This document shows positions 6,005 to 25,752 of a stretch of 64,000 bases of DNA, piece by piece. Source of the stretch: Tenuifilaceae bacterium CYCD (GTDB lineage: Bacteria; Bacteroidota; Bacteroidia; Bacteroidales; Tenuifilaceae); the NCBI GenBank assembly GCA_036322835.1, contig AP027304.1, positions 3,162,001 through 3,226,000 of the forward strand, given 5' to 3'. A program made the translations under genes and the position numbers. Each line of letters opens with the position of its first letter. The first letter of the stretch is position 1. The notes under the pieces are model-generated. The model did not search any database, was not told the DNA's origin, and was given only the letters and a program-made list of their open reading frames with translations.

Positions 6005-6652
6005 TTATAAATTAACCAGATTGTTGCGGAGCGCGAATTTTATAAGGCTGATAATGGTTTTGCACTTGGTCTTTTCGTAGATATGTTGCCGATGGGTATC
6101 AACAGTACGTTTACTGATAAACAACTTCTCAGCAATCTGCTCGCTCGATAGTTCTTCGCATATAAGCTGAAGTATTTCCAGTTCCCGCTCGGTTAGGTTG
6201 TGTGTTTCCTCCTCGGTTCGCTTATCTTTTTTAACCTTTATCATTAAATTGGTAAGCACCTCGCGGCTGTAGAAAGTACCATCATCGGCTATGCTTGTAA
6301 GGGCTGCCACAAGTTCCTTTTTACCAGTATTCTTAAGGATAAAGCCCTCGGCTTCGCTCATAAGAATTTCGTTGGCCACATCCTGATCGTTGTACATAGT
6401 TAGCACCAGTATCTTGATTTGCGGGTACTCCTTTTTCACAGTTCGGGTCAATTCTGTTCCGCTCATGCCGGGCATACTTATGTCGGTAATCATAATATCG
6501 ATGGGAGTATTTTTAATCTTCTCCAATGCTATACTACCATCAAGCGCTTCGTCCACAATTTTAAATCTCTTTTCGTTGCGCAGCAACGCTTTTATCCCAT
6601 CAATAAACATTTGATGGTCGTCAACTAAAAACAGCCTTACGGGTTCATTCAT
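6005..6652 (-). CDS. LuxR/NarL-type response regulator
   Basis: 215 aa. Receiver domain at residues 1-125 with the acidic pair D11-D12, the phospho-acceptor D57 in MITDISMPG, and the KNTGKKEL region carrying the conserved Lys. A LuxR-type helix-turn-helix spans about 148-210 (LTERELEILQLI, SSEQIAEKLFISKRTVDTH). It binds DNA as a phosphorylated dimer. The gene overlaps the upstream sensor kinase by 8 nt, so the two are translationally coupled and form a pair. Because the kinase in turn follows a caspase gene by only 6 nt, the regulator is likely made with that protease and may control the locus or an envelope response. Confidence 0.95.
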   Translation of the reverse strand: MNEPVRLFLVDDHQMFIDGIKALLRNEKRFKIVDEALDGSIALEKIKNTPIDIMITDISMPGMSGTELTRTVKKEYPQIKILVLTMYNDQDVANEILMSEAEGFILKNTGKKELVAALTSIADDGTFYSREVLTNLMIKVKKDKRTEEETHNLTERELEILQLICEELSSEQIAEKLFISKRTVDTHRQHIYEKTKCKTIISLIKFALRNNLVNL

Positions 6653-8444
6653 GTTTTAGAGGTATTTCAATGTTAATGGTAGTGCCTGATTGCTTGCCGG
6701 GAACAATTTGGCTATTGCCATTTAATATGGATATTCGGTTAAAAATATTGTTCCAGCCTATCCCGGTTGTTTCATTGAGTTTTGATAAATCAAAACTTTT
6801 GCCATCGTTTATGATATTTAAACTGATACTCTCATCATCATTGATTAACGAAATATTAATGAATGAAGCATCGGCATGCTTAAGTATATTGTTGATAATT
6901 TCCTGTATTATCCGGTAAACTGAATGCTCTATATTATTGGCAAACCGACCTGAAAGGTTTATGTTGGTCGTTATTTGTACTTTACCGGTTTGGTTGATTT
7001 GTCGGGCAATTTCTTCAATAGCTGCTTGTAAACCAAATTTTTCAAGCGAAACAGGCATTAGGTTGTGCGAAATTTGCCTGACTTCAACCACCGACTGATC
7101 AACTAACTGTAAGGCATTATCCAGTAAGAATTTATCCTCAGGAATGATATTCTCCTCTAAACTGGCTAAATTAATGCGTGCGGTGGAAAGTATTTGTCCA
7201 AGGCCATCGTGAAGTTCACGGGCAAAACGGGTTCGTTCTTTTTCCTCAGTTTCAATTAAGGCAATTAAATGTTTATGTTTTTCAAAGGATAATTTTTCCT
7301 GAAGTTTTAACTCTTGCTTGTGTTTGAAACGGGTATAGAACAGTAGAAAACTTAGAATAATTAAAACGGTCAATGTCAATAGCATTAAGAGCTGAATCGA
7401 TCGGTTTTTTAATTTTACGTGCTGTTGTTCTATTTTTTTCTCCTTTTCAACCGTTTCGAATTTAATTTGCAGATTAGCAATGGTTTTATTGGTCTCGATA
7501 TTTATTAAGCTATCCTGTAATTGCTTGTGTTTTTTGTAATGTTTAAGGGCTAATTGGGGTTGGTGCTCATGTTCGAAGCATTCCGAAAGTTTTAGATTCA
7601 TATCACTTTTTAAATAGAGATAATTCAGCGAATCGGCTTTTTGTAATGCAGTTAAAAAAAAGGAAATGGCTTTTTTATAATTTTTAGTATACTGATAAAA
7701 ATCGCCGTACTGACTATAGCATTCAGCCAATCCCATCTGATCATTTATTTCAAGTCGGATCTGCCGTGCAGAATCGAGGAATAGAAGTGCAGAATCGAAT
7801 TTATTCGAAAGCATGTATGAGATTGAAATGTTGTTTAAAGTATACGGTAGGCCATGTTTGTTGTTTAGTTGCTGTTTTAATTTGAGTGCTTTTTTATAAT
7901 AGGAAACCGAACTATCGAGCTGGTTACTCATTTCGAAAAGCACCCCATAATTATCATATATTTTTGCTAGTTGCTCTTTGTTTCCTGTAGTTATTAAAAT
8001 CTCAACACCATGCTGCATTAGCCTAAAGGCTTTTTGCAAATCGAAGCGTTTTGTACGATATCCTATTTCACCGTACATTTTCCCTAATTTCTCAGGGATG
8101 TTAAGATGATCATAAATATTTAATGCCCTGAATCCGGTCTCAAAACTTTTATCATATCTACCGCTCATATAGTAAGCCAGGCTTAGCTGCTCAAGTATTT
8201 GAGCAAGTTCTATGCTATTTTGCTCGCTTTCAATAAGATTCACCTGTTTTTCCAGTAATGGAATAAACCTATCGGTGTTTTCAACTAAATCTTCATATTT
8301 TATGTTAATCAAAAAGTTAACTTGTTCATTTGAAGTTAAGTTATTGAAAACTGTTGCAACCGAATCAATATTATTTGCCAGAACAACAAAATGGTAGCAG
8401 AGAAATAATCCCAGCAATAAAAATCTTTTTCTAAATAAAGACAT
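6645..8444 (-). CDS. TPR-containing sensor histidine kinase (HisKA_3 type)
   Basis: 599 aa. An N-terminal signal/anchor (residues 5-23) is followed by an exported region of TPR helices (about 75-320; for example QLSLAYYMSGRYDKSFE and YDNYGVLFEMSNQLDSSVSY). A membrane helix lies at about 350-371. The cytoplasmic part has the HisKA_3 phospho-acceptor H412 in FARELHDGLGQ, then a GHKL ATPase domain with N-box IIQEIINNILKHA and G-box TGIGWNNI. The TPR region probably senses a periplasmic protein or peptide. The start lies 6 nt after the stop of the WD40-caspase gene, and the 3' end overlaps the response regulator, so protease, sensor and regulator are probably one transcript. Confidence 0.95.
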   Translation of the reverse strand: MSLFRKRFLLLGLFLCYHFVVLANNIDSVATVFNNLTSNEQVNFLINIKYEDLVENTDRFIPLLEKQVNLIESEQNSIELAQILEQLSLAYYMSGRYDKSFETGFRALNIYDHLNIPEKLGKMYGEIGYRTKRFDLQKAFRLMQHGVEILITTGNKEQLAKIYDNYGVLFEMSNQLDSSVSYYKKALKLKQQLNNKHGLPYTLNNISISYMLSNKFDSALLFLDSARQIRLEINDQMGLAECYSQYGDFYQYTKNYKKAISFFLTALQKADSLNYLYLKSDMNLKLSECFEHEHQPQLALKHYKKHKQLQDSLINIETNKTIANLQIKFETVEKEKKIEQQHVKLKNRSIQLLMLLTLTVLIILSFLLFYTRFKHKQELKLQEKLSFEKHKHLIALIETEEKERTRFARELHDGLGQILSTARINLASLEENIIPEDKFLLDNALQLVDQSVVEVRQISHNLMPVSLEKFGLQAAIEEIARQINQTGKVQITTNINLSGRFANNIEHSVYRIIQEIINNILKHADASFINISLINDDESISLNIINDGKSFDLSKLNETTGIGWNNIFNRISILNGNSQIVPGKQSGTTINIEIPLKHE

Positions 8445-8450
8445 CTGTAA

Positions 8451-11400
8451 CTATTTTACTGTAAACCCAAACTTCTGATAAATATTATCTCTATCAACCG
8501 TTGGGTGCTGCAAATCTCCACTGGCTTTTGCTACCTGCTCGCTTACGTATTGGCGGAGCTCATCGGTTGAGACAGTTCCGTTATTATCCTTATCCGCTTC
8601 TGTTGTGGTAAGGGCTTTTATAATGTACTCGGTGAAAAGCCCGTTTTCAATGTCGCTGCGCTCATAGCTAAGTTCACCACCCTTGGAACTGGAGAATACA
8701 ATGGCTCCGCTTCGGCGGACAAGGTCGTTGTAGATGTAGCGGTCCTTCTGGTAAAGGTAGCTTCGCTTGGTTGTTGGTTGTTGGTTGTTCGCTGATTGGG
8801 AAGAGGTGGTTTTGAAGCCGCGGGAGGCGATTCCCAAACCTTTCAGGTTTTCAAAACCTGAAAGGTTTTCATAGGTTTCATCATCAATCTCGCCCGACTC
8901 GCAGGCATCCATCAGGAATAGCTTGTTACGCGGTGGAATTCCCTGAAGCAAATCCTCTATAGTTTCAAAGTCCGCCGCTGTGGCTTTAAGGTTGTTCACA
9001 TCGGCATTACTGGTTAAATAATAGTAGGTTGCCTCAGCATCCTTATCGTGCATACCATGGCCAGCGATGAAGAGAATGAAAGTATCATCTGGTTTGGCAT
9101 TTTTCACGAAATCCTTTGATGCTTTGATTGCTTCGGGGGTTACCTGCTCATTCGTGAGAGTTTTGGTGTAGACATTTTCGAAGCCTTTGCCTTTGAGATT
9201 TTGAATGGTTTTCTCCAGGTCAAGAGCATCCTTGTGGGCATATGCTAGGTTATATGACGTATTTTGATACTTTGATACACCAAAAGCCAAGAAATATATA
9301 TCTTTTTTTACAGGTTCACTGTTTATTAGCTTTATTTGATCCCTATAACTTTCAACGCCTAAATTGTTGGTACAAGAAATCTCAACTTTATTTATCCCAG
9401 ATGATAAAACAACTGATTCTGAACCTTTATTCAAATTACCTTTTATAGATTTACCATAAATACCCCAAATTGGTACGTCATTGATAAATATTGAATATGA
9501 CTTTAACTCATGTTTTGGATCAGAAACAGAAAAACTGATATCAGCGCTAACTCCTGTTTGCTTTATATCTGTTATTTTAGCAACCGGTACTTCAAGTTCT
9601 GTGAACGACCAATTATTATTCACCCCAAGTTTTCGAATACGCTTTTCATATTGCTTTTCATATTGTTTGACAATTTGAGCATCGTATGATGGTAGTTTTT
9701 TCATAATAAGGTCTGGGCGATTTGTGTTTGTTGCAAATTGGTCGATTCCCCACAGATTCATGCCTTGAACCATATTAACTATATTTGTAGCATTTATTGA
9801 ACCATCCCAGTAGCCATCAGAATTGTACACTAGCCAGGTTCCAATTTCACTGTTATAATAAAATGCAGTCCATGAGCCATCATCAATATTCCATAATCTA
9901 GCAGTACCATCAGAATCCGTTGATAAAACATATTTATCGTTATAGGCAAAATTTGCTGATGAAAAAAAGCCAGCATTGCCTTCTAATACTTTAATTGTTT
10001 GATTGGTGGCTAAATCCCAAATTCTAATTTTAGAATCGTTCAATAATGAGAGAGCTAAAGTCCCTTTAGAATTTATTGATAATAAGCCAACCCATGGTGA
10101 GCCTTCTAATGGCTTTTCCTTATTTTTATCGCCAACCCTCTCTACATATGTATCAGAGGAATGTTCAAAGTTTATTGTTGTTTTAGTCGTTGAAATATAA
10201 AACTTTTGGGGCCTATGTGTGGGCATCAGTATATAATCTTCCTCCTTGAATTTTGTTTTACCCTCAGGCTCTCCTTTCCCTAAATAATCGAAACTAAAAT
10301 TATCATACCCTTTTTTGGAAATTAACCATTTTTTATCAGGCGTTATCGCATAGTAATCCCATTCATCACCCTTGTACAGGTTATTTAGTTCAATTGGGCG
10401 GCATTGTCTTAAATCCCAGAATATTAATTGTCTTGATCCATTAACCATAAAAAAAGTATCTGTTGTTGGAATAAAGTAAGCGTTAGAAACGCTACTTATT
10501 TTTCCTGTAAAATACTGGATTGGCTCAGCGGTATTAATATCCCAAAGGGTTGGTATTTTATCACTACTTCCTATCAGTACGTTTTTACTGTCGGGGGACA
10601 AGGCTATTTCGCATTCAAATTTCTCTTGTTTTATCTTCTTTACTAATTCTTTAGAATCTACATTCCATAGGTAAATATTGGAATTATTACCTGATCCAAC
10701 TCCGGCAATCAATAGTTTGTCATCATTGGAAAAAGCAAGTCGGAATGCTGAAGAGTTCTTTAGGGGATAATTATATATTTCCTTTTTAGTTTGTACTTCC
10801 CATATCCGCATTGCATCATCTTTACCTGCTGAAGCTACAAATTTCCCATTATGCGATAGCGAAACACAATAGACTAAGCCGGAATGAACAAGTGTTGCAA
10901 TGTTTTTCTGCTTTTCAATATCCCACAGCTTAATATCGTTATTCCAACGAGCACATGTAGCCATTGTTTTGCCATCCTGCGAAATACTGATATCAAGTAT
11001 TCCGTTTAAAGACTGACCCTCATTATGCATTTTCTTCATTGTAAACAATACTTGCCCTGTAGCAATGTCGAAACGCTGCACCACATTGCAATTTGCCGAA
11101 CCCGCTAAAAAAGTTTTACCGTCTGGGAAAATTTTAATTGCAGATATTCCATGCTCTTTACCTTTCTCAAAACTATCAAATGTTTTTATCACTTTACCTG
11201 TTGATAAGTCATACATTATCATTTGCTTATCACGAGATCCAGTAATTACATATTTTCCATCGGGGGTAATATCCATGGCAGTTACCCATGATTTATGCCC
11301 AACAAATGAACGTAATAGTTTACCACTAGCTATATCCCACAATTTTACGGTTTGATCGTTAGAAGCGGTTAAAACATACTTCCCTTCTGGAAGAAATGCG

Positions 11401-11540
11401 ACTCTTTCAATTCCACCAATATGGCCAATCTGAATGTTTAAATCGGGTTTTAAATTAGAGTTTAACTGGGCTTTAACATGGTTTATTGGTATCATATAAA
11501 CCACAACAAATAAAAACAAAAAAGTAACTTTAGTTTTCAT
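8451..11540 (-). CDS. Exported WD40-propeller/caspase-domain (C14) protease, copy 1
   Basis: 1029 aa. Signal peptide at 1-24 (ending HVKA). Degenerate WD40 repeats follow to about residue 590 (FLPEGKYVLTASNDQTVKLWD and others), then a linker with NSDGYWDGS and IDQFATNTNRPD shared by all three paralogues, and an Ig-like segment. The C14 domain begins near 755. The catalytic dyad is intact: H828 in FIAGHG and C880 in LMDACESGE. The Asp two residues before the Cys is the metacaspase-type pattern linked to Arg/Lys specificity (inference). An EF-hand-like loop, DKDNNGTVSTDE, occupies 983-994 in the p10 part. The p20-p10 linker is encoded by a palindrome and heptad repeats. It is 6 nt upstream of a sensor kinase gene. 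Confidence 0.93.
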   Translation of the reverse strand: MKTKVTFLFLFVVVYMIPINHVKAQLNSNLKPDLNIQIGHIGGIERVAFLPEGKYVLTASNDQTVKLWDIASGKLLRSFVGHKSWVTAMDITPDGKYVITGSRDKQMIMYDLSTGKVIKTFDSFEKGKEHGISAIKIFPDGKTFLAGSANCNVVQRFDIATGQVLFTMKKMHNEGQSLNGILDISISQDGKTMATCARWNNDIKLWDIEKQKNIATLVHSGLVYCVSLSHNGKFVASAGKDDAMRIWEVQTKKEIYNYPLKNSSAFRLAFSNDDKLLIAGVGSGNNSNIYLWNVDSKELVKKIKQEKFECEIALSPDSKNVLIGSSDKIPTLWDINTAEPIQYFTGKISSVSNAYFIPTTDTFFMVNGSRQLIFWDLRQCRPIELNNLYKGDEWDYYAITPDKKWLISKKGYDNFSFDYLGKGEPEGKTKFKEEDYILMPTHRPQKFYISTTKTTINFEHSSDTYVERVGDKNKEKPLEGSPWVGLLSINSKGTLALSLLNDSKIRIWDLATNQTIKVLEGNAGFFSSANFAYNDKYVLSTDSDGTARLWNIDDGSWTAFYYNSEIGTWLVYNSDGYWDGSINATNIVNMVQGMNLWGIDQFATNTNRPDLIMKKLPSYDAQIVKQYEKQYEKRIRKLGVNNNWSFTELEVPVAKITDIKQTGVSADISFSVSDPKHELKSYSIFINDVPIWGIYGKSIKGNLNKGSESVVLSSGINKVEISCTNNLGVESYRDQIKLINSEPVKKDIYFLAFGVSKYQNTSYNLAYAHKDALDLEKTIQNLKGKGFENVYTKTLTNEQVTPEAIKASKDFVKNAKPDDTFILFIAGHGMHDKDAEATYYYLTSNADVNNLKATAADFETIEDLLQGIPPRNKLFLMDACESGEIDDETYENLSGFENLKGLGIASRGFKTTSSQSANNQQPTTKRSYLYQKDRYIYNDLVRRSGAIVFSSSKGGELSYERSDIENGLFTEYIIKALTTTEADKDNNGTVSTDELRQYVSEQVAKASGDLQHPTVDRDNIYQKFGFTVK
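8768..8795. repeat. Four heptad repeats inside caspase copy 1
   Basis: Plus-strand units TGGTTGT, TGGTTGT, TGGTTGT, TCGCTGA. They encode the Ser/Asn/Gln/Thr-rich part of the linker between the p20 and p10 parts. Four heptads also occur at the matching place in the other two caspase genes. Confidence 0.8.
8836..8868. repeat. Perfect palindrome inside caspase copy 1
   Basis: A perfect 16-bp inverted repeat (AAACCTTTCAGGTTTT and its complement) around a single C at 8852. It is read in frame as ENLSGFENLKGL in the caspase linker. The same palindrome is in copy 3 at 22805-22837 but absent from copy 2. Confidence 0.9.
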
Positions 11541-11608
11541 AATAAAACGAATTGTACTAAAAATGTATTTAAATTATTGTCTCAACTTTATTATAACTTC
11601 AATCAAAT

Positions 11609-14600
11609 TCATTTTACTCCAAACCCAAACTTTTGGTAAATATTATCCCTATCCACAGTGGGGTGCTGCAAGTCACCGCTAGCCTTAGCCACCTGTGCAC
11701 TCACGTACTCGCGGAGCTCATCGGTTGAAACGATTCCATTTCCATCTTTGTCAGCTTCGGTTGTTGTAAGGGCTTTCATAATGTATTCAGTGAAGAGTCC
11801 GTTCTCAATATCGCTACGTTCGTAGCTTAACTCACCACCCTTTGAAGACGAGAACACGATTGCGCCGCTTCGACGGACAAGATCGTTGTAGATGTAGCGA
11901 TCTTTCTGGTATAAGTAGCATCGCTTCGTTGACGGTTGAGAGTTGACGGTTGATGGGGAAGAGGTGGTTTTGAAGCCACGGGAAGCAATGCCAACGCCTG
12001 TTGCAGTAGCTATCATCTGCCCTTGATCCTCCTCGTCAATCTCCCCCGATTCGCAGGCATCCATAAGGAAGAGCTTATTGCGGGGAGGAATCCCTTGTAA
12101 CAAGTCTTCGATAGTCTCAAAATCGGCTGCGGTGCCTTTTAGGTTGTTAATATCGGCATTGCTGGTAAGATAGAAGTATGTAGCATCCTTATCGTTATCG
12201 TGCGTTCCGTGACCTGCAATAAATAGAACAAAAGTGTCATCGGGTTTAGCATCTTTCAAAAAGTCTTTGGTTCCCTTAATCGTTTCGGGTGTAACATCTT
12301 CGTTTAGGTAAGTTTTCGAATAAACATTAGCATAATGTCCACTGGTTTTCATTTTCTCAAAAACATCAGATAAATCCTTGGCATCTTTATCGGCATACTG
12401 CAGGTTTAATTCTGCGTTTTTGTACTTCGATACGCCAAAACCTATGTAGTAAAGATTTGGCTTAACGGGAGAGGCGGGTTGATAACTAGCGGAAGTAAGT
12501 GCTCTGAATGACTCGGCTCCGTATTCGTTCATTGCAGAAACTTCTATCTTATTATCACCAGAAATAAGTTCAATGGTTTCAGTAAGAGCCAGTGATCTTA
12601 AATCAATGTTTGCAGTTCCAGAAAGATCTTTCCCATAAGTTCCAAATATTGGAACATCATTAACAAATATATTGTAACGGGTTACCTTTGCAGTTTTACT
12701 CGTTATGGTAAAATCGACATTTACATTCTTGCCCGATTGAACTGTTTTTGTAATCTTTGTTTCTGGAGTTTCGTAGTCTTTCGAAAGTTTATCCTCTGTA
12801 AGGTTTAGTTTTTTTAATCGTTTAAGGTATTGATTGTAATAATGTTTTATTAATTCAGGATCTACTTTTGTAATTTTTCCCAATATTTTATCGGGACGGT
12901 TGTTCTTTATAGCAAACTGATCGATATTCCATACCTCCATTCCATGAACCATTGCAACAAGGTCGCCTCCATTTGGAGAGGCATCCCAGAAGTTTTCGTT
13001 ATTGAATACAAGCCATTTAGTATCTTGATTGTTAGAGTTGGCAATTGAAGTATAGATTATTTCGCCGCTTGCCACATCCCAAAACTTGAGAGAATTATCA
13101 GCAGAGCCTGAAAGGATCGTTTTCCCATCGGGTGAAAAACAAACAGAATAAACACAGTTTGTATGTCCTGTAAACGTTCTCATAGAAGTCTTCGCTGAAA
13201 TATCCCAAAGTTTAATACTGTTATCCGAACTTCCTGAAAGAGCATACTTACCATCGGGTGAAAAACAAACGGAATTAATTAAGTCAGAATGCTCTGAAAA
13301 AGACCTTAATTCTTTTCCACTGGAAACATCCCAAAGTCTCATTGCATAATCATATCTTTTAGATGCTGAAGATCCAGCCTCAAAACCTCCTGAAAGAGCA
13401 TACTTACCATCTGGTGAAAAACATACAGTCCAGAACCTTGCGTGAGGAATCTTTGAAAAGGTTCTGACTTCTTCACCTGTGGATATATCCCAAAGGATAA
13501 TATTACTTTCACCTGTTAATACATATTTCCCATCAGGAGAAAATACTACGGAGTTTATACCATTACTATAACCTGAAAACGTTCTGATCTCTTTACCTGC
13601 GGAAAGGTCCCATAATTTTATTGTTTTATCCTCGCTTCCTGAAATAGCCATCCTCCCGTCAGGAGAAAATGCTACGGAATTAACTATTCCGGAATGTCCA
13701 GAAAAAGTTTTAATCTCATTTCCTGTGGCAATATCCCAAAGTTTTAAATTGCCATCAATGCTTCCTGAAAGAGCATAGTTGCCATCGGGAGAAAAGCAGA
13801 TAGATTTAACCCATTTTGAATGCCCTTGAAAAGTTTTAACTACTTTACCTGACGAAACCTCTAGTAAATTAAAAGAGTTACCAATCCCTGAAAGAGCATA
13901 TTTACCATCGGGAGAAAAACAAGCAGAAACAACAGCCATAGAGTTCTCTGAAAATATTTTAGCATCCTTTCCTGATGTAATATTCCAATATTTTAGAGTG
14001 TTATCACCACTTGATAGAGCATATTTACCATCAGGTGAAAAACACACAGATGAAGCAAATCTGGAATACCCAGGAAAAGACATGACCTCTTTTCCAGATG
14101 AGATATTCCAAAGTATTACTTTCTTATCTTCACTTCCCGAAAGAGCGTATTTACCATCCGGGGATAAACTAACTGTATTTATTTCATCTGAATTCACTGA
14201 AAATGTTTTAACCTTTTTTCCTTTTACAACATCCCAAAGTTTTAACGTTTTATCTCGACTCCCTGAAAGGGCATATTTCCCATCAGAAGAAAAACAAACA
14301 GAGGATACAGCACCTTCATGCCCTGTAAAAGTTTTTATCGATATTCCTGTTGCAATATTCCAAAGTATTATGGTTTTATCTTCACTTCCCGAAAGAGCAT
14401 ATTTACCATCGGGGGAAAAACAGACCGAATTAACATAATCGGTATGCCCAGACAAGTATTTGAATACCTCTCCAGTTGAAACATTCCAAAGTTGTATTTT
14501 GCTATCAAAGCCTCCCGACAGAGCATATTCTCCATTTGGGGAAAAGCTGACTGTATAAACGGATTTATTGATTCCAGAAAAAACTCTGATTTTTTCCCCG

Positions 14601-15122: not shown

Positions 15123-15188
15123 CTATTTAATTACTCCAAACCCAAACTTCTGGTAGATATTATCCCTGTCCACCGCGGGGTGCTGCAA
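15123..15188 (-). pseudogene. Remnant of a caspase gene 3' end (21 codons plus stop)
   Basis: Minus-strand translation gives LQHPAVDRDNIYQKFGFG, then VIK and a stop. It matches the extreme C-terminus of the three caspases (LQHPTVDRDNIYQKFGF...) with one substitution and one added residue. The match begins 5 nt after the stop codon of the CHAT gene and there is no upstream caspase sequence. It is therefore the leftover tail of a further caspase paralogue whose body was lost or replaced by the CHAT gene. It cannot be translated on its own. Confidence 0.9.
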
Positions 15189-15193
15189 ACATT

Positions 15194-18100
15194 CTACATC
15201 CCATAGTACACAAACGGAGCCCAGTAGAATGGCTGGTTGTATTGCCCCTTAATAAAAGTTCGTTTCACCTGATTGATGGCCTTTGAAATGGGCATCTTCT
15301 CAACAAACACCAAGCGGTAAAACTCCTTCTGGAATTCCATGGTCGATTGGTCGGATACTTTCCATAGCGAAACGGCAATGGAGTTTGCTCCTGCCAGTAG
15401 AAACGATTGGGTAAGCCCAACAACTCCTTCACCTCCATAAATTTTACCTAGCCCTGTTTCACATGCGGATAGGTTCACGAAGTCGGCGTTCAGGTTTAGC
15501 TTTGCAATCTCAGAGGCTCTGAGGTAACCATCGTCATTTGGCAAACCCTGTGAAAGCACTAAAGCGGATAGGTCTTGATATTCAGGGATTACAATACCAT
15601 GCGTAGCAAAGTGAAGTATCTTATATCCCTTTAGCTGACCATTAGCCGACATCCCCTTTACGCTTTGCTCGTTTACATCCTTGCCTTTTATGCAAACCGA
15701 ATTTGGAACAAGACCAGATATGGCATCAAGTTCAGCGAGAGTACCCGATAGATTTTCCCATGCAATACCTAAAGCATCGTAATACCTCTTCATGCTCACA
15801 CCGTCCTTGGAGTCAGTCTCAACGCCCTTCATCATCTCATTAAACTGTTCCTGTGATTGGGTTTGCTGGGTTTGAGCATTGGGTACATCATAAACAGCAT
15901 TTCCGAAAGCCAATAATGGTTTACGATTATCTGAATACTTTCGATTAGCCAGCTCATTCCCGACAGAGAGCGAGGGAAGGTATCGGATATCATACTTCTC
16001 AACCAGATAACGTCCATCGGGCATAATAAAAGCCTCGTAGGGAAGGAACGCTAGTAAATCGTTGGGAATAATGACAAGCTCTTTTTTACCTACCAGTTTA
16101 TCCTCAACCGGAAGAATTAGTAACTCATAGAATTTTTTGCCAAGAAAATCGATTGTTTCTTTTTCTGCTGGAGTTTTTATAGGTTTTGAAAGTAACGAGC
16201 GGTAATTGTTCGCTATTTTTTCAATCTCTCTTTTGGTTCTATCCCAATTTTCTTGTTGGGGCTGGTTTACTGCCAATTCAGTGTTAGGTGGGTTCTGTAT
16301 CCGTTTAAACGCTCGAAGCTTTTCAAACGAGCTTATATCGGAGATGCTGTACCGATCCTTTACCGATTTAACCCATATATCATCGTTTACTCCAATTCCA
16401 TCAATCGAATTGGCATCGGTTAAAATGGTTGTTAGCTTATTCCCGATATTCCCAAAACATAGTATGGCCTGTTCCTGAGGAATGTTTTTTTGCCATTGGG
16501 TTGGGTCAACAAATAGATTACTGTTTTTCCCTGCTTTACTGGCAATCCTTTCAAGAAGCAACCGAGCCGTCGATTTTTCGATAGAGTTAAATGCCCCTTG
16601 GTAGTCCTGCATTGATAGCTGGCATCGGATTATGTTCTGGTAATTTACGTATTGTCCAGACCAATAATTTAACTTCAGGTCATCTGGAACAAGAGCTCTT
16701 TCCTTCTCCCTACGGTCAATTATGCTTAAATAAAAAGGAATTGCCTGGGTATAATCATCGTTTAAATCGTAAGTAAGGCCTATCCATTTCTCAAAATTGT
16801 CGATATAAACATCATCATTAATATCCTTTGCTATTGAATAACCTTCTTTTAAGAAATCGAGTGATTTTTGCCTGCTTTGAGAAACTTCAGCCCTTCCCAA
16901 AGAGAAAAGAGCGACCATTTTCTTTTTCGGATTATTAATTTCATTGGCTAGATTTAACGCTTGTTGAGCCCAGCTAATCGATTCAGCATATTTTCCAATC
17001 CACATATAGCAAACTCCTAATTTCCCATAACAATCCACAAGCTTTTCCTTATCATCTAACTCCTTATAAATCGGGATTATTCGAAGTACATAATCTATTG
17101 CATTTTGGTTCTGTTGTATTTCAGCGTAGCAACAGGCAATATTCCATTGCACAAGCGCAGCATAACTTTTATAATCCAACTCTTCATAAATTTTTTGCGC
17201 TTTTTTATAATATTCTATGGCTTTAATGGTATTACTCAAGTCTGCATATATTGTACCTAAATGAGTTGCAATTAATGCTTTTGTAAAAGGATCATCGTTT
17301 AGTGCATCGGCCTGATTATAGTAATCGATTGCTTTAGCAAATTCTTTTAACTTTTGATAATTACTACCTATTTGAGCAATCAGCTCCGCCTGTACATTTT
17401 TTGAAAGCTTACCGGTGAGATTCTTTAAGTCTTTTTGCAACTGATCAATGGCAAAACTTGATTTGCCCATGTTTTCATATATTATTGAGAGATATTTTGC
17501 AATTTGCCCTTTTTGATCTGGTTGATCCGAAACGATAGCCGCCTGATTATAATACTCAATTGCTTTAGCATTATCTTTCAAACCAACATCATATATAGCA
17601 GCTAGCTTTATAAGCAAATCGGCTTCCTGCGTTTTGGATATTTTACCAGTGAGTTTTTTTAACGCTTTTTGCAAATACTCAATAGCTGCGCTTGGATTGC
17701 TCATATTTTGATATGCTTCAGCAATTTGCTGAGCAACAAAAACATTTTGATCGGGCAGGTCGGTTGCAACATCAGCCTGACTGTAATAATCAATTGCTTT
17801 GCTCGAATTATCGAGAAAATAAAAATAAATATTTCCTAGCTGAGCGAGTATGTTGAATTTCTGATTTGGCCCGCGTTTACTATCAGGATACGCTAATGCT
17901 TGATTACAGTATTCAATGGAAATGGAAGGATCTTTTCCTGCCCTAATGCCACTACTGATTAAAGACAGTAGAGTTCCCCTTACATAGTATGAATCATCAA
18001 GTTTTTGGCTATAAGGAAGTGCCTTTTCAAAGCATAAGAATGCGTTAGCGTGGTCCTTCTTTAAAGAATAAATATTACCTTTTACAGACCATTCATAGTA

Positions 18101-18403
18101 TAGTGCATGGGAATTACCCGAAGATTCAGCCATCTCGGTAATTTTATCAACGAACTTCTCCGCTTCATCTAGTTGACCTAAATTCATCAAGCAAAAAGCA
18201 ATCTGTCCATTTGCCGATGCGATAAGCCCTTTATCATTCTCCTTCTCCGCTATTGCAATAGCCTGCTTTGCAAGTTCAATACAATATTTGTTATCGCTTG
18301 AATCTTCAGCTTTTATAAGCAGTTCAAGCGCTGTTTGGGCTGAAAGGTTGAAAGTAAAAGTAATTACGAAAAGCAGAATCGGGATAATCCTTAAATACTT
18401 CAT
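15194..18403 (-). CDS. Exported TPR-CHAT protease
   Basis: 1069 aa. Signal peptide MKYLRIIPILLFVITFTFNLSA. About a dozen TPR units cover residues 25-600 (KAIEYYNQA, KAIDYYNQADA, NLGQLDEAEKF). The CHAT domain (caspase-like, HetF-associated with TPRs) occupies about 740-1069, with dyad residues H935 in ILHFATHG and C981 in LSACETGLG, then GVVGLTQSFLLAGANSIAVS. CHAT proteins are cysteine proteases of the caspase clan; the best-known one partners the type III-E CRISPR effector. There is no CRISPR machinery here and this copy has a signal peptide, so it should work in the envelope. It lies between caspase copy 2 and the MORN gene, all on one strand. Substrate unknown. Confidence 0.95.
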   Translation of the reverse strand: MKYLRIIPILLFVITFTFNLSAQTALELLIKAEDSSDNKYCIELAKQAIAIAEKENDKGLIASANGQIAFCLMNLGQLDEAEKFVDKITEMAESSGNSHALYYEWSVKGNIYSLKKDHANAFLCFEKALPYSQKLDDSYYVRGTLLSLISSGIRAGKDPSISIEYCNQALAYPDSKRGPNQKFNILAQLGNIYFYFLDNSSKAIDYYSQADVATDLPDQNVFVAQQIAEAYQNMSNPSAAIEYLQKALKKLTGKISKTQEADLLIKLAAIYDVGLKDNAKAIEYYNQAAIVSDQPDQKGQIAKYLSIIYENMGKSSFAIDQLQKDLKNLTGKLSKNVQAELIAQIGSNYQKLKEFAKAIDYYNQADALNDDPFTKALIATHLGTIYADLSNTIKAIEYYKKAQKIYEELDYKSYAALVQWNIACCYAEIQQNQNAIDYVLRIIPIYKELDDKEKLVDCYGKLGVCYMWIGKYAESISWAQQALNLANEINNPKKKMVALFSLGRAEVSQSRQKSLDFLKEGYSIAKDINDDVYIDNFEKWIGLTYDLNDDYTQAIPFYLSIIDRREKERALVPDDLKLNYWSGQYVNYQNIIRCQLSMQDYQGAFNSIEKSTARLLLERIASKAGKNSNLFVDPTQWQKNIPQEQAILCFGNIGNKLTTILTDANSIDGIGVNDDIWVKSVKDRYSISDISSFEKLRAFKRIQNPPNTELAVNQPQQENWDRTKREIEKIANNYRSLLSKPIKTPAEKETIDFLGKKFYELLILPVEDKLVGKKELVIIPNDLLAFLPYEAFIMPDGRYLVEKYDIRYLPSLSVGNELANRKYSDNRKPLLAFGNAVYDVPNAQTQQTQSQEQFNEMMKGVETDSKDGVSMKRYYDALGIAWENLSGTLAELDAISGLVPNSVCIKGKDVNEQSVKGMSANGQLKGYKILHFATHGIVIPEYQDLSALVLSQGLPNDDGYLRASEIAKLNLNADFVNLSACETGLGKIYGGEGVVGLTQSFLLAGANSIAVSLWKVSDQSTMEFQKEFYRLVFVEKMPISKAINQVKRTFIKGQYNQPFYWAPFVYYGM

Positions 18404-19566: not shown

Positions 19567-19641
19567 GAGTGACTTGAGTGTCTAAGTACTTCGAGTACTT
19601 AAAGTACTTTAGGCACTTATAACTTTAGGGCACTTTAAGTA
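19567..19641. repeat. Second tandem nonamer array
   Basis: About eight 9-nt units, including AGTACTTCG, AGTACTTAA, AGTACTTTA, GGCACTTAT and AACTTTAGG. It lies between the stop of the propeller-MORN gene and the start of the MORN gene, matching the placement of the array at 18428-18535. Confidence 0.75.
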
Positions 19642-19642: not shown

Positions 19643-22279
19643 TTATTCAGAAACAAACTCTCCATCCTTAAACTTCCCAGTTTTGGTTGTTCCATCGGTG
19701 TAGGTCATGGTTCCGATACCGGTAACCCAAGGCGACCAAATCGAGTCAGGATCCTGTTTACCGACCCAAATACGACCATCGCGATAATGAACGGTGGCAT
19801 CAGTGGCTTTGCCATTAACGTACATGGCCTCAACATACAGTATTTCTTTGCCAATGCCCATTTTAGAGAGCATTTTCCCGTTTGGTTTACCATCCTTATA
19901 AATACAATGTTGTGCTTCGCCATTTTGAAAAAAAATATCCACATTCCCCTGAAATTGGTCAAGAGAGTCCTTTTTTTCGAACAGTTGAACCTGACCGTTT
20001 TCCCAGAACTGAACCCCGCTAACCTTTTTCCCGTTTACAAAAGACCCATCTATTCGAGAACCGTTCTCGTTTTGAACTATCCCCTTGCCATTCGTGCAAT
20101 CGCCAGATATGCATCCTGTTTGTCGTCCAGAACTGAGTTTGACCTCATCCTTCCATTTTGCAACTACTGTTGTAGTTGGGTAGTGAGTGGTAAAATCTCC
20201 ATCCTTCATCGTATTTGTATAAGTTCCGATTTCAGTAATTTTCTTTGCATAGAATAATGTACATCCATAGCCATTGGGCATATCATTGGCAAAGTATCCA
20301 TTGTACAAAACGTTGTCTGCTGCAAGATGTATTTGTCCTAAACCCTCCCTAACACCATTCTTGAAGTAGCCGATGTATTCTGTTTTACCATCCGGTTCAA
20401 TAAGGTAGCCAAACCCATAAAAACAGTCACCGGCAACGCAACCTGTAAGTGTAGATTCAACGGCCTTAGGTTTTTCTACTTTTATACGCTGTTTCACAAT
20501 TTTATTACCGGTTACATGTAAATTCTGCAAAAGACCAGCAGAACTGCTCTTTAATGCAGTCAACTCGTAGGGTCGTCCATCGTTGGCTATTTGAACATCG
20601 GTGTTAATCACCGGCGAATATCCATCATTAATGAAAACCGATATTTTCCCATTTTCTGTTGCTTCCACGGTCATGCTTTTATACTCCCATGTTTTGAAAG
20701 TAATATGTTCAATCAAGTTTTTTGAAACCAGAACAGTCTCCTTATCCTTTTCTAAATGGAGAAGTTGAACCCAACCATCCTGATATGCACGGACTACATA
20801 GCTTTCGTAACGACCCTTGGAATCGTTTGGAATTTTTCTAATCCAGAAGTTAAGCGATACGTAATCGCTCTTGCGGGTTGATACATCTGCAATAAAGAAC
20901 TCTAGATTAGCCTTAAACGACAAACTATACATGGTAATAAAGCTACCAATAGAAGAAGCCGTGATATCAGATTTCTCAACTCCCGAAATATTCCAAACCG
21001 TTGTACCGCCATCTCCGCGATCAAAATCGATATCAAACTTATCAGCATAGGAGTCAGTATATTCGGCAACTTTCAAGCCACTAAGCACGCTGAGGTCGAT
21101 CTTTTGCTTTGATTCTGTTGTAATGGTTGTTGAAATAGGTTGCTGATTACTCGATATTTCATTTGGATTTGAAGTTGACACTACGTTATCTTGTTTTGGC
21201 GGTTCGTAAGTATATGTGTCCTCAACTGTTTTCGAATTATCAAAATCGAATAGTTTTCCTGTTTTAAGGGAATGCATTTGGAGCGGTTTGTTCTTATAGG
21301 CTACTACAATTTTTTGCTTATCGCTTGATGCGAATAAGTAATCATCATAATTTTTGTTAGGTACAGTGTAAACTATATCCGTAACGGTAGTCGCTATATT
21401 ATTAACAGAAACACCACTACAGCTAAACATCACCATTTTATCACCTTCCGGGGTTAAAAACTGGTCATAACCTGAGTTTAAAGAAGTTGGGGTTACAGAA
21501 CCTGCTGATGCATCGTAAATGAACCCTTCGAATACTATTTCCTTCATTGAACTAAAATCACCACCAACATATACTTTGTTACAATTATCGGATGCGCTAA
21601 GTTTTGCCCTGAAAATTTTAGGGCTGAAAGGAAATTGTGTTTTGTTTATAAGGTTCATTTTACTGTCGTAATCGTAAATCCAGTAATCGTAAAGCTGCTT
21701 CTTTTCGTTCATCTCTAATTTGTTCAGAATCAATACCCCGTTATCGGGTTTGATCGCTATCCCACAAATTTGAATATGCGGATCGTTACCCTTGGAATTT
21801 TTACAATATGGTTTTGTATAAAAACTATTCAATTTATTTCCAGCACTATCTGCACAATAAACCTCATGGCCAACATCATATGCCATCATCAGGGTTCGGC
21901 TGTCGGGAGAAAAGCCTAAATACGACGCATCAAAATCAATCATTTTTATCGTCTTCCCTTTAGCATCCAACAAATAGGTTTTGTAATTATCCATACAAGC
22001 AGCTATTCGCTTACCATCGGGTGAAATCGCTAATCTAGAAACCTTACTTTTTGCATTGTTGTAACCTACGGCATCAGTAGCTGTTGAAAGAATAAGTTTA
22101 CCCTCCCCATTCCAAACTTGAATGGTACCATCCTCATAACCAGATACCATTTTTTGGTCGTTTGGGGTAAATGCCATACAGGTTACTTGACATTGGCCTT
22201 GCTGGGCGTTCTCTGTTTGAGCAAAAACGCCGTAGGTTATGATTAAACATAGAATTAGCGATAAACTTTGTTTTTTCAT
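19643..22279 (-). CDS. Exported propeller/beta-sandwich/MORN chimera
   Basis: 878 aa. The signal peptide ends GVFA. Residues 25-370 contain WD40-like blades (FTPNDQKMVSGYEDGTIQVW, ISPDGKRIAACMDNYKTYLLD). A low-complexity Thr/Ser stretch at about 375-395 leads to a concanavalin-like beta-sandwich (about 395-605; DGWVQLLHLEK, KSMTVEATENGKISVFIND). From about 610 it carries MORN repeats almost identical in layout to the neighbouring 318-aa protein, again with two GCxxGDC motifs. No catalytic residues are seen. It joins the sensor type of the caspases to the MORN part of its neighbour, so it could act as an adaptor or decoy substrate (inference). Confidence 0.88.
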   Translation of the reverse strand: MKKQSLSLILCLIITYGVFAQTENAQQGQCQVTCMAFTPNDQKMVSGYEDGTIQVWNGEGKLILSTATDAVGYNNAKSKVSRLAISPDGKRIAACMDNYKTYLLDAKGKTIKMIDFDASYLGFSPDSRTLMMAYDVGHEVYCADSAGNKLNSFYTKPYCKNSKGNDPHIQICGIAIKPDNGVLILNKLEMNEKKQLYDYWIYDYDSKMNLINKTQFPFSPKIFRAKLSASDNCNKVYVGGDFSSMKEIVFEGFIYDASAGSVTPTSLNSGYDQFLTPEGDKMVMFSCSGVSVNNIATTVTDIVYTVPNKNYDDYLFASSDKQKIVVAYKNKPLQMHSLKTGKLFDFDNSKTVEDTYTYEPPKQDNVVSTSNPNEISSNQQPISTTITTESKQKIDLSVLSGLKVAEYTDSYADKFDIDFDRGDGGTTVWNISGVEKSDITASSIGSFITMYSLSFKANLEFFIADVSTRKSDYVSLNFWIRKIPNDSKGRYESYVVRAYQDGWVQLLHLEKDKETVLVSKNLIEHITFKTWEYKSMTVEATENGKISVFINDGYSPVINTDVQIANDGRPYELTALKSSSAGLLQNLHVTGNKIVKQRIKVEKPKAVESTLTGCVAGDCFYGFGYLIEPDGKTEYIGYFKNGVREGLGQIHLAADNVLYNGYFANDMPNGYGCTLFYAKKITEIGTYTNTMKDGDFTTHYPTTTVVAKWKDEVKLSSGRQTGCISGDCTNGKGIVQNENGSRIDGSFVNGKKVSGVQFWENGQVQLFEKKDSLDQFQGNVDIFFQNGEAQHCIYKDGKPNGKMLSKMGIGKEILYVEAMYVNGKATDATVHYRDGRIWVGKQDPDSIWSPWVTGIGTMTYTDGTTKTGKFKDGEFVSE

Positions 22280-22368
22280 AGGGTCAGATATTTATATTTT
22301 AATTCGAATTGTGTAAGTTAATTGTTTGTATTTATAATTCTGATAAATAGTATACTTATTCTGTATGT

Positions 22369-22424
22369 GGCAAGCGGTAAGCGACAAGTTCTTTCTTGTC
22401 TCTTGTCGTTTATTACTTTTCACT
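22369..22424. repeat. Heptad tandem array at the 3' end of caspase copy 3
   Basis: Eight 7-nt units (GGCAAGC, GGTAAGC, GACAAGT, TCTTTCT, TGTCTCT, TGTCGTT, TATTACT, TTTCACT). The two halves are roughly complementary, giving a hairpin around CGACAAG/CTTGTCG. The last units overlap the stop codon of the caspase gene. It may help end transcription. Confidence 0.65.
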
Positions 22425-25400
22425 TAATACCAAACCCAAACTTCTGGTATATGTTATCCCTATCCACCGTAGGGTGCTGCAAATCGCCGCTTGCTTTGGC
22501 TACCTGTGCACTCACGTACTCGCGTAGCTCATCGGTTGAGACGATTCCGTTTCCATCTTTGTCTGCTTCGGTTGTTGTTAGGGCTTTCATGATGTACTCG
22601 GTGAAGAGGCCATTCTCAATATCGCTGCGCTCGTAGCTTAGCTCGCCACCCTTGGAGCTGGAGAATACGATGGCTCCGGAGCGACGGACAAGGTCGTTGT
22701 AGATGTAGCGATCCTTCTGGTAAAGGTAGTTTCGCTTGGTTGTTCGTTGTTCATTGTTCGTTGATTGGGAAGAGGTGGTTTTGAAGCCGCGGGAAGCGAT
22801 TCCCAAACCTTTCAGGTTTTGAAAACCTGAAAGGTTTTCAAAGGTTTCTTCATCAATCTCGCCCGACTCGCAGGCATCCATTAGGAATAGCTTGTTGCGG
22901 GGAGGAATACCCTGTAGCAAATCCTCAATAGTTTCGAAGTTAGCCGCGGTACCTTTTAAGTCCTTTAAATCGGTATTGTAAGTTAAGTAGTAGTAAGTGG
23001 CCTCGGGGTCTGAATCGTGCATACCGTGCCCAGCAATAAATAGAATAAAGGTATCGTCAGGCTTGGCACTCTTCACAAAATCCTTTGAAGCCTTTATTGC
23101 ATCGGGTGTTACCTGCTCGTTGGTAAGGACTTTGGTGTAAACATTGGTAAAACCTTTTCCCTTGTAGTTTTCAATTACCTTCGATAAGTCTAATGCATCT
23201 TTATCGGCATACTGTAGGTTGAGTTTAGGGTTATTGTATTTTGATACTCCAAAAGCCAACAGGTACAAGCTTCCTTTTGCCTGCCCCTTATAATTGGTGT
23301 ATAGCATTGCTCTATACGATTCCACCCCCTTTTCGTTTACACAAGATGCCTCAATTTTGTTTGACCCATTCGAAAGAGGAACTGTTTCGCTTACCGTCAC
23401 GCTTTTTCCATTAATGTTTTTGCCATTTACTCCATAAACAGGAATATCGTTAACGTAAATGTGATACTTGGTTAAACTATATTTAGAATCCTTAAAAGTG
23501 ATATTAAGGCTGATATTGTTGCTGTTGATGGTTGAACTTGCAATTTCTGCTTCAGGAAAGTTCAATTCGGAAATAGTATCTTTTTCATTCAGATTTATTT
23601 TTTTCAACCTCTTTAAATACTGTTTATGGTAATGCTCAATAAGCTGATTGTCGGTACAGCCAAGCCGTTTAATAATAATATCGGGTCGATTCTTTTGAAC
23701 AGCAAACTGGTCTATTCCATACCCTTTGCAATCGTTTACCATAGTTACAAGTTGTCCCCCTAGATTCGAAGATTCAAAGTAGCCGTCGGGAGTGAAACAG
23801 AGCCAATCTTTACCTGCATTCATGATTTTGCAGATCAAATTAGTTCCCAGTTGATCATACACTTCCAGGAAGGGAGCGTTTTGCACCAGGCTTACTTTGG
23901 GCTGATTCTTCAAAAACTCATCATACTTAATGCTTGTATTACTTTCCAATGCCTTTCCATTTTTTACATTCCAGTAGTGTTTTATGCCAGTTGATTCTAA
24001 GCCAACCAAAACCTTTGAATCGTCGGAGAAAAATAGTTTAAGCCGGTTCAATCCTATTGTACTCAAATTGGTTTCAAAAATTTTAGCGCCAGTATTATAG
24101 TCGAAAACATGGATGATATTGTCGGTATCGAAAACGACAAAGTGCTTTTTATCGGGACTCGAAGCCATCTCCTTAATGTATTTATACTGACCTAAATTGG
24201 CGGTATAAAGCCTTTTGCCTGTTCCATACTCAAACACCTCTATTTTGCTATTCCATGTCGACATGTTAATTGTAGGAGCAATAATTTTTGTCAGATCAAC
24301 CATTGGGGTGTAACTAAGCCACATGGAATCGCTCAATTTAACTTCAAAAGCCTTGATCCATGTTTTAAAATCATAAAAACTAATACCTTCCGAATTTGAG
24401 AATAGAGGGAGGTACTTGTTATCCTTTGTTACATTACCGAGGGTTATGTTGCTTTCTGCTTTAAAGGTTGATTTAAGTTTGAGTGGCGAAATATCAAAGT
24501 AGAAAACTTTTCCTGTCACATCTTTTACAAAAAAACTTTGCCCATCGTTAGATAAAACAGCCTCGGAGATCGGTTTGTTATCAACTTTAGATTGAGTTAG
24601 CAGAACCTGATGCTGAAGGTTTTGAAAGTCCCAGTAAATAAGCATGGAATCTGTAGGTAGCAGGCTCCTATAACCTCCGGCTTGACAAGCAATCGTTGGG
24701 TAAACATCGGCGCGGATAGATTGCCCAATAACCTTTTCGAGATTGCCCGTTTTTATATTAAATATTTTGGTGTTTTGATTATCGCAAATACAGTAATTTT
24801 TATCTGTAACATATAGCCCCAAATCAATACTATTTGACGAGTATACTAATTTCCGCTCCCCTGAACTCAAATTTAGAGCATAAAGATTATTGTCTTCGAT
24901 GATGAACAAAAATTCATCGTTATCATCAAATACCAGATCTTTTACTAGTCCCTTAAATGCTAATGCGTATTTTTTATTTGACGAGTTTAGATCCGCTATA
25001 AATAAAGTATCCTGGTTGCTTTTGTAGATTCTTTCCATATATGCATAATACCTGCCGGTATTTGATGTAGCTGACGCATTAATGTTATAGCTTTTGTATG
25101 GAATTTTAATTCGACCTTTGACTGATTGATCATTAATGGATTGTATGGTTAAATTGCTGTTCAAATCAAGAAATGAGAGCCACTTGCCATTTCTAGATGT
25201 CTGTATATTACTTGAATTACCGATTTTAAGTAACTTAACTTGTTTGTTGTTTACGATATCATATAAAGGATAGAAATTAAGAATTTCATTACCCTCGAAT
25301 ATTAGATCCTTACCAATTATCGAATCATTAATTACGATGCATCCATTGTTAAGCGTTTTCTCGAGAAGAATATCATTTTTGAGGGCTTTTGTACTTTTTA

Positions 25401-25752
25401 CAGCATTCTGTTTAATATCCCACATATAAACGCTATCGGGTAAGTTATTGAGGAAGAATCTTGTGTACAAAAGTTTTTGGCCATCGTCGGTAAACCCGAC
25501 AATTTTTTTGAAATAGTCTACTTTATTTATTGCTATTTGCTTGTTGGTTGCTAAATCCCAAATCTCAATACCGGTATGCAAATTATAAATTGCAGCTAAC
25601 CTGTTGTTTTTACTTATGCATAAGGAGCTTCCAGCTCCGCCAAAATTAGGGTTAAACCTAAAGTTGGCATTTTGAGAATCAACCGTTGTGGTAAATCCCA
25701 CTAAAACAACTAAAACAACTAAAACATAAAATAATCGAATAAAACTTTTCAT
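22420..25752 (-). CDS. Exported propeller/caspase-domain (C14) protease, copy 3
   Basis: 1110 aa. Signal peptide MKSFIRLFYVLVVLVVLVGF. The sensor part (about 30-690) is a divergent beta-propeller with few clear WD motifs (SPDKKHFVVFDTDNIIHVFD). The shared linker IDQFAVQKNRPDI and an Ig-like region follow. The C14 domain has H909 in FIAGHG and C961 in LMDACESGE. An EF-hand-like loop lies at 1064-1075. Its last 105 residues differ from copy 2 at only about two positions, though the DNA has many silent changes, so the protease end is under strong selection. The p20-p10 linker contains the palindrome and heptads. It is probably the first gene of the caspase/CHAT/MORN run. Confidence 0.93.
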   Translation of the reverse strand: MKSFIRLFYVLVVLVVLVGFTTTVDSQNANFRFNPNFGGAGSSLCISKNNRLAAIYNLHTGIEIWDLATNKQIAINKVDYFKKIVGFTDDGQKLLYTRFFLNNLPDSVYMWDIKQNAVKSTKALKNDILLEKTLNNGCIVINDSIIGKDLIFEGNEILNFYPLYDIVNNKQVKLLKIGNSSNIQTSRNGKWLSFLDLNSNLTIQSINDQSVKGRIKIPYKSYNINASATSNTGRYYAYMERIYKSNQDTLFIADLNSSNKKYALAFKGLVKDLVFDDNDEFLFIIEDNNLYALNLSSGERKLVYSSNSIDLGLYVTDKNYCICDNQNTKIFNIKTGNLEKVIGQSIRADVYPTIACQAGGYRSLLPTDSMLIYWDFQNLQHQVLLTQSKVDNKPISEAVLSNDGQSFFVKDVTGKVFYFDISPLKLKSTFKAESNITLGNVTKDNKYLPLFSNSEGISFYDFKTWIKAFEVKLSDSMWLSYTPMVDLTKIIAPTINMSTWNSKIEVFEYGTGKRLYTANLGQYKYIKEMASSPDKKHFVVFDTDNIIHVFDYNTGAKIFETNLSTIGLNRLKLFFSDDSKVLVGLESTGIKHYWNVKNGKALESNTSIKYDEFLKNQPKVSLVQNAPFLEVYDQLGTNLICKIMNAGKDWLCFTPDGYFESSNLGGQLVTMVNDCKGYGIDQFAVQKNRPDIIIKRLGCTDNQLIEHYHKQYLKRLKKINLNEKDTISELNFPEAEIASSTINSNNISLNITFKDSKYSLTKYHIYVNDIPVYGVNGKNINGKSVTVSETVPLSNGSNKIEASCVNEKGVESYRAMLYTNYKGQAKGSLYLLAFGVSKYNNPKLNLQYADKDALDLSKVIENYKGKGFTNVYTKVLTNEQVTPDAIKASKDFVKSAKPDDTFILFIAGHGMHDSDPEATYYYLTYNTDLKDLKGTAANFETIEDLLQGIPPRNKLFLMDACESGEIDEETFENLSGFQNLKGLGIASRGFKTTSSQSTNNEQRTTKRNYLYQKDRYIYNDLVRRSGAIVFSSSKGGELSYERSDIENGLFTEYIMKALTTTEADKDGNGIVSTDELREYVSAQVAKASGDLQHPTVDRDNIYQKFGFGIK
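22737..22764. repeat. Four heptad repeats inside caspase copy 3
   Basis: Plus-strand units TGGTTGT, TCGTTGT, TCATTGT, TCGTTGA, encoding the Ser/Thr/Asn/Gln-rich linker of the caspase domain at the same place as in copies 1 and 2. Confidence 0.8.
22805..22837. repeat. Perfect palindrome inside caspase copy 3
   Basis: The same 16-bp inverted repeat as at 8836-8868, centred on a single G at 22821 instead of C, read in frame as ENLSGFQNLKGL. The central base change gives the Glu-to-Gln difference between copies. Confidence 0.9.

What the first reader, a model, noticed from the sequence alone, without database searches (positions are those of the whole stretch)
6005..25752. Exported caspase/CHAT/MORN protease locus with its own two-component system
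Seen: eight co-directional genes. Three are beta-propeller-caspase proteases with intact His/Cys dyads, one a TPR-CHAT protease with intact dyad, one a MORN protein, one a propeller-MORN chimera, plus a TPR sensor kinase and LuxR regulator. All six non-TCS products have signal peptides. Known: caspase, metacaspase and CHAT proteins share a clan, and bacterial examples work in defence or stress, mostly inside the cell. Inference: this is an envelope protease cascade in which propeller and TPR parts sense a partner and MORN proteins are adaptors or substrates. I know of no described system with this set.
Basis: partly seen in the sequence, partly recalled or inferred. Interest (0 to 1): 0.82.

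Follow-up and report, generated by a model that had tools for sequence, protein, structure and literature searches.

The report
Exported caspase-like protease gene cluster
A Bacteroidales genome carries a species-specific cluster of exported caspase-fold proteases that share one cutting domain but have different sensing domains, drawn from a widespread and barely studied kit of caspase-like enzymes that are sent out of the cytoplasm.

Summary
The genes, dyads and signal peptides are as described. (1) "Its own two-component system" is not supported: in another genus of the family, kinase, regulator (75% identical) and the three downstream genes stand together without any protease gene. (2) The eight-gene set is not conserved: neither congener nor any family member searched has this C14 subfamily, and one family member has the MORN type. 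(3) The parts do associate elsewhere: the GCxxGDC MORN type is fused to an exported caspase domain in 13 loci of the order, 9 of them beside an exported papain-like gene; a propeller-MORN gene adjoins a propeller-TPR-CHAT gene in one relative; exported CHAT genes lie near 5 of 76 relatives of these caspases. (4) All 21 C14 proteins of this genome carry export signals. The window paralogues share a strongly constrained catalytic half with unalignable propellers, and nest in a mostly non-Bacteroidota clade. The linker holds an Arg invariant in 32 of 32 relatives; S1 acidic residues and an EF-hand-like loop are conserved; the model matches MALT1. Best reading: exported zymogens with one basic-residue specificity and varied inputs. 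Substrate and purpose are unknown.

The parts
8451..11540 (-). C14a: signal peptide, WD40 propeller(s), Ig-like domain, caspase-fold domain (His828, Cys880, linker Arg907, EF-hand-like loop 983-994)
11609..14917 (-). C14b: signal peptide, long WD40 array of 42-aa repeats, Ig-like domain, caspase fold (His903, Cys955, Arg980); no palindrome in linker
22420..25752 (-). C14c: signal peptide, diverged propeller, Ig-like domain, caspase fold (His909, Cys961, Arg988)
15194..18403 (-). Exported TPR-CHAT protease (His935, Cys981); nearest relative found is a propeller-TPR-CHAT protein in G011, 56% over 691 aa
18539..19495 (-). Exported MORN protein with two GCxxGDC (Cys-x4-Cys) motifs
19643..22279 (-). 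Exported propeller - unassigned middle domain - MORN protein; MORN part 52% identical to its neighbour
   Evidence: middle-domain model too poor to use
15131..15188 (-). Remnant of the 3' end of another C14 gene, just downstream of CHAT: trace of a lost array member
   Evidence: (91% to the C14b 3' end)
6645..8444 (-). TPR sensor histidine kinase (HisKA_3), 6 bp downstream of C14a; neighbour rather than part of the protease module
6005..6652 (-). LuxR/NarL-type response regulator, 75% identical in G012, where no protease genes are adjacent
2205..5588 (-). Three exported genes (204, 335, 556 aa) that form a conserved block with the kinase and regulator in G012 (74%, 81%, 72%)
8836..8868 (.). 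Perfect 33-bp palindrome, in frame, in the p20-p10 linker of C14a
22805..22837 (.). Same palindrome in the linker of C14c

Best explanation
The cluster is a locally assembled part of an extracytoplasmic caspase-clan protease kit. Each C14 protein is exported as a zymogen. Its N-terminal propeller is the input, binding a partner or ligand in the periplasm or at the surface. Binding, with calcium at the EF-hand-like loop, allows dimerisation and cleavage of the disordered p20-p10 linker after its invariant Arg. The active enzyme, with an acidic S1 pocket, then cuts partner proteins after Arg or Lys. The three paralogues keep one catalytic half and vary the propeller, so one specificity serves several inputs. 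The TPR-CHAT protease and the MORN proteins come from the same kit, as co-working protease and scaffold; the Cys-x4-Cys motifs would suit a disulfide in an oxidising compartment. The two-component system is a neighbour with a life of its own. Shown: gene content, dyads, export signals, export signals on all 21 C14 proteins of the genome, constraint pattern, invariant residues, predicted fold, recurrent associations. Inferred: the final compartment, propeller as sensor, calcium dependence, auto-cleavage at the Arg, P1 specificity, joint action with CHAT and MORN.
For: All 21 C14 proteins of the genome have N-terminal signal or lipobox sequences, with WD40, ankyrin, TPR, WG-like, Glucodextran_B and FGE modules. 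Over 32 relatives from several phyla His828, Cys880, Asp771, Asp878 and linker Arg907 are invariant (32/32), and loop residues Asp983 and Glu994 are in 30/32. The linker is disordered in the model (pLDDT under 50 for residues 314-330 and 342-356 of the modelled part); best PDB match MALT1 (E 1e-10; caspase domain 3v4o TMt 0.74). Last 103 residues of C14a/b/c: dN 0.03-0.06 with dS 1.1-2.5; propellers 19-30% identical. MORN-C14 fusions: 17 proteins in 13 loci, 9 of them with a co-directional exported Peptidase_C1 gene. G251 has CHAT, MORN-C14 and C1 in a row. G011 has propeller-MORN then propeller-TPR-CHAT. Exported CHAT near C14 in 5 of 76 loci.
Against: No expression, activity, localisation or substrate data. 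The exact gene set is unique to this genome among those searched. CHAT enrichment near C14 depends on the background: P 6e-5 at the mean density of 60 relatives, but 0.19 at the density of the most CHAT-rich one. No MORN (A1) gene lies in the flanks of the 76 C14 loci. The EF-hand hit is below the Pfam cut-off (15.9 against 25.4 bits, C14c). The invariant Arg could be structural rather than a cleavage site.
Confidence: 0.45

Rival explanations
1. The cluster is a recombination-prone array without joint function: C14 genes duplicated, one was lost, and CHAT and MORN genes happen to sit among them; each exported protein acts alone.
For: C14 remnant at 15131-15188 and inverted and direct repeats between genes; a conversion-like tract between C14a and C14c (dS 0.06 over 46 codons, against 1.25 in the adjacent C-terminal part and a saturated estimate in the p20 part); the set is absent in congeners; two or more C14 genes in 11 of 76 loci.
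Against: MORN-C14 fusions, the MORN-CHAT pair in G011 and the CHAT, MORN-C14, C1 row in G251 tie the same parts together elsewhere.
Confidence: 0.28
2. One reading: an envelope protease cascade switched by its own TPR kinase and LuxR regulator, with the MORN proteins as adaptors or substrates.
For: The kinase starts 6 bp after C14a on the same strand; all genes co-directional.
Against: Kinase, regulator and three downstream genes are conserved as a block without any protease gene in G012; the closest kinase relative in G011 lies beside other genes.
Confidence: 0.12
3. Secreted nutritional proteases that degrade external protein.
For: Export; co-directional papain-like genes beside MORN-C14 fusions; extracellular protein degradation has been suggested for metacaspases of aquatic Betaproteobacteria (PMC4933709).
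Against: A caspase-type acidic S1 and a zymogen-like linker suggest limited proteolysis; large, fast-diverging propellers are not needed for bulk digestion.
Confidence: 0.1
4. Anti-phage or other conflict system of the caspase/CHAT type.
For: Caspase and CHAT effectors with variable sensors are known in conflict systems (PMC8195603, PMC10907252); patchy, cross-phylum distribution.
Against: All products exported; PADLOC matches weak (caspase 23-27 bits; HEAT-ARM and TPR models matched through repeats); no NTPase or adaptor domain found among the eight genes.
Confidence: 0.05

Closest known systems
Prokaryotic metacaspases/orthocaspases with WD40, TPR, FGE or MORN domains (Asplund-Samuelsson 2012, PMC3501461; aquatic survey 2016, PMC4933709)
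   Same: C14 domain with protein-interaction repeats; large repertoires (28 in Haliscomenobacter); multi-metacaspase operons; MORN-metacaspase listed as an architecture
   Different: Those surveys left localisation largely open; here all 21 C14 proteins carry export signals, and CHAT, standalone MORN and (elsewhere) papain-like partners are added
MALT1 paracaspase
   Same: Best structural match of the predicted Ig-caspase region; S1-type Asp pair (my alignment by eye)
   Different: About 15% identity; an Ig-like domain before the caspase domain; exported; propeller instead of death domain
TPR-CHAT proteases: Csx29 of Craspase (PMC9729208) and HetF of Anabaena (PMC8406250)
   Same: CHAT domain with TPR repeats; HetF is an envelope-associated CHAT protein at the septum
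   Different: Here a signal peptide and no Cas7-11 seen beside it; in HetF the CHAT domain is N-terminal (aa 1-555 used as CHAT antigen)
caspase, EACC1-associated type (NCBIfam NF047832)
   Same: Partial profile match over the p20 part
   Different: 68-73 bits against a cut-off of 140

Membership tests
Peptidase family C14 (caspase fold) | Pfam C14 match over cut-off and His/Cys dyad | tested here: met
Peptidase family C14 (caspase fold) | Caspase fold | tested here: met
   AF2 model pLDDT 79.7; MALT1 and caspases top the PDB search; prediction only
Peptidase family C14 (caspase fold) | Proteolytic activity after basic residues | not testable with these tools
   S1-type Asp pair invariant; no assay
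CHAT proteases | CHAT domain with intact dyad | tested here: met
Craspase (type III-E) TPR-CHAT | Adjacent Cas7-11/gRAMP gene, cytoplasmic complex | tested here: not met
   No such gene among the eight or the flanking genes run through Pfam; CHAT has a signal peptide. No dedicated CRISPR-array search was made
NF047832 caspase, EACC1-associated | Score over curated cut-off 140 | tested here: not met
   67.9-73.4 bits
Known anti-phage systems in PADLOC | Strong matches to system proteins | tested here: not met
MORN-metacaspase architecture | MORN and C14 in one protein | tested here: not met
   Separate genes here; fused in 13 loci of the order
Conserved eight-gene system | Co-occurrence in close relatives | tested here: not met

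The most novel reading that the evidence does not exclude
An undescribed extracytoplasmic signalling network built on two caspase-clan proteases (C14 and CHAT), with MORN, DUF4384/LPP20-like and papain-like partners. It would be spread across phyla and act as an envelope counterpart of caspase signalling, with paralogues that swap the sensor and keep the blade.
Probability: 0.25. Interest if true: 0.82.

Novelty: new variant of a known kind. Interest (0 to 1): 0.52.

Why it matters
Bacterial caspase relatives are discussed mostly as cytoplasmic death or defence enzymes. A genome whose whole set of 21 carries export signals, together with recurring CHAT, MORN, DUF4384 and papain-like partners, would point to a separate envelope role. 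It gives precise tests: one invariant linker Arg, one calcium-type loop, and paralogues that share a catalytic half but differ in propeller.

Tried and rejected
Dedicated two-component system: rejected on synteny in G012. Conserved eight-gene set: rejected (the XdhC-side flank in congener G002 has no C14 gene). Recent duplication as the reason for near-identical catalytic halves: rejected, because synonymous sites are saturated or near it except in a 46-codon linker tract between C14a and C14c. Palindrome as a genome-wide dispersed element: found only in C14a, C14c and C14d in the 381 kb of this genome held. Middle domain of propeller-MORN: single-sequence fold unusable; no convincing relative among the ORFs held from this genome. 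Bacteroidota -7 promoter motif: one match, 47 nt before C14c, but about that many are expected by chance in that much AT-rich DNA. Terminator scan failed for a range limit and was not repeated. No RNA family or tRNA in the window.

Full report
OBSERVATION. The eight minus-strand genes at 6005-25752 are as described. C14a, C14b and C14c have WD40-type propellers, an Ig-like stretch and a caspase domain; the CHAT protein has TPRs; the MORN domains of the two MORN proteins are 52% identical and carry two Cys-x4-Cys motifs each. Dyads are intact. All six non-TCS products begin with a typical Bacteroidota signal peptide ending before Gln. The script used for export signals is crude: 256 of 573 background ORFs also score, so the claim rests mainly on the sequences themselves and on consistency (21 of 21 C14 proteins in the genome; 70 of 78 complete named relatives, most of the rest having a visible signal).

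THE TWO-COMPONENT SYSTEM. In G012 (same family, other genus, 63% complete) the kinase (38%), regulator (75%) and the next three genes (72%, 81%, 74%) form the same block, but the gene before the kinase is divergent and is no protease (it looks like a tRNA-modification enzyme by eye). The regulator therefore belongs with the downstream genes. A later link to the protease genes, 6 bp upstream of the kinase, is possible but has no support beyond position.

CONSERVATION OF THE SET. The C14 subfamily was not found at E 1e-50 in either congener or elsewhere in the family; of 60 genomes four had it, counting the window's own. The MORN type was found in one family member, G011. The order appears to be Bacteroidales: contigs of same-order genomes G043, G058 and G033 reappear as Bacteroidetes/Bacteroidales records of identical length. 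Around the XdhC gene in congener G002 there is no C14 gene. Several of these genomes are drafts, so single absences are weak.

LINKS AMONG THE PARTS. In G011 a propeller-MORN gene is followed directly by a propeller-TPR-CHAT gene whose last 691 residues are 56% identical to the window's CHAT. Across the order the MORN type occurs as exported MORN-C14 fusions: 17 proteins in 13 loci, of which 9 have a co-directional exported Peptidase_C1 gene nearby, DUF4384-bearing in both members tested with Pfam. In G251 an exported CHAT gene, a MORN-C14 gene and a C1 gene follow one another. Of 76 named loci of the C14 family, 5 have CHAT genes in the flanks; in L077 and L122 these are co-directional at 52 and 88 bp. 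Expected from the mean density of 60 relatives: 0.39, P 6e-5; at the richest genome's density P 0.19. A further recurrent partner is an exported protein of about 510 aa with DUF4384: beside C14 genes in five named loci, beside CHAT in G011, and beside the CHAT/C14d locus of this genome at 3096961-3098508.

PARALOGUES. A fourth member, C14d, lies about 60 kb away with an FGE-like C-terminal extension (by eye). In the last 103 residues C14a, b and c differ at dN 0.03-0.06 while dS is 1.1-2.5; propellers are 19-30% identical. The pattern is strong purifying selection on the catalytic half with free divergence of the input half. One tract of 46 codons around the linker is nearly identical between C14a and C14c (dS 0.06), which looks like gene conversion, and it holds a perfect 33-bp palindrome. 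A C14 tail fragment after the CHAT gene shows loss of a further member.

ORIGIN. In a tree of 43 catalytic regions, 13 of 16 named Bacteroidota members fall in one deep clade (100/100). The window paralogues nest in the other, with Spirochaetota, Delongbacteria, Elusimicrobiota and Myxococcota, next to Bacteroidetes bacterium GWF2_35_48. Transfer between phyla followed by expansion is the simplest reading; MAG binning error is a caveat for the named records.

MECHANISM. Over 32 relatives the dyad, the Asp two before the Cys, the Asp matching the MALT1 S1 residue (my alignment by eye) and Arg907 are invariant; most neighbours of Arg907 are variable and the linker is disordered in the model. An EF-hand-like loop keeps its first Asp and last Glu in 30 of 32, although Pfam's EF-hand match is below cut-off. 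MALT1 is the best structural match. A published review says caspases and type II metacaspases are cut in the p20-p10 linker, and describes p10-less orthocaspases as calcium-independent (PMC5756287); the loop here would make this family an exception if it binds calcium. Inference: Arg907 is an activation site and the loop a calcium switch.

KNOWN OR NEW. WD40, TPR, FGE and MORN fusions of metacaspases and multi-metacaspase operons are published (PMC3501461; PMC4933709). HetF shows an envelope-associated CHAT protein (PMC8406250). I found no description, in the held library, of exported C14 with CHAT, MORN, DUF4384 or papain-like neighbours. New variant of a known kind.

Noticed in passing
window 8836-8868 and 22805-22837; L010 11320-11352: Perfect 33-bp palindrome, in frame, in the p20-p10 linker of C14a, C14c and C14d, absent from C14b; followed by heptamer-like repeats. 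Not found elsewhere in the 381 kb of this genome held.
   Followed up: partly
window 15131-15188: Fragment of a C14 3' end right after the CHAT gene: trace of a lost array member.
   Followed up: partly
window 18437-18487 and 19584-19625: AGTACTT/AGTGCCT-type direct and inverted repeats in the gaps on both sides of the MORN gene.
   Followed up: no
L179, L182, L183, L186, L187, L189, L190, L191, L193: Exported MORN-C14 fusion near an exported co-directional papain-like (Peptidase_C1) gene, with DUF4384 in the two checked.
   Followed up: partly
L068, L091, L104, L105, L137, L063 4179-5708, own genome 3096961-3098508: Exported protein of about 510 aa with DUF4384 (LPP20/FlgO-like hints) recurs beside C14 or CHAT genes across phyla.
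   Followed up: partly
L113, L119, L120, L126, L127, L129: A set of small exported genes (about 150, 220, 240 and 350 aa; one weakly beta-barrel-like, two with lipoprotein-like starts) precedes the C14 gene, the last within a few bases; candidate partners or substrates.
   Followed up: no
own genome 3108181-3112329 (L010 10182-14330) and 2798031-2800166: C14d carries an FGE-sulfatase-like stretch after the caspase domain (by eye); another C14 protein (2798031) has C14 first and FGE last by Pfam.
   Followed up: no
window 43836-51820: MoxR-DUF58-VWA-BatA-BatD operon (Bat aerotolerance type); its MoxR also matches, less strongly, the model of MoxR-vWA-propeller ternary systems.
   Followed up: no
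own genome, 21 places: All 21 C14 proteins of this genome start with signal peptides or lipoboxes; input modules include WD40, ankyrin, TPR, WG-like repeats and Glucodextran_B.
   Followed up: yes
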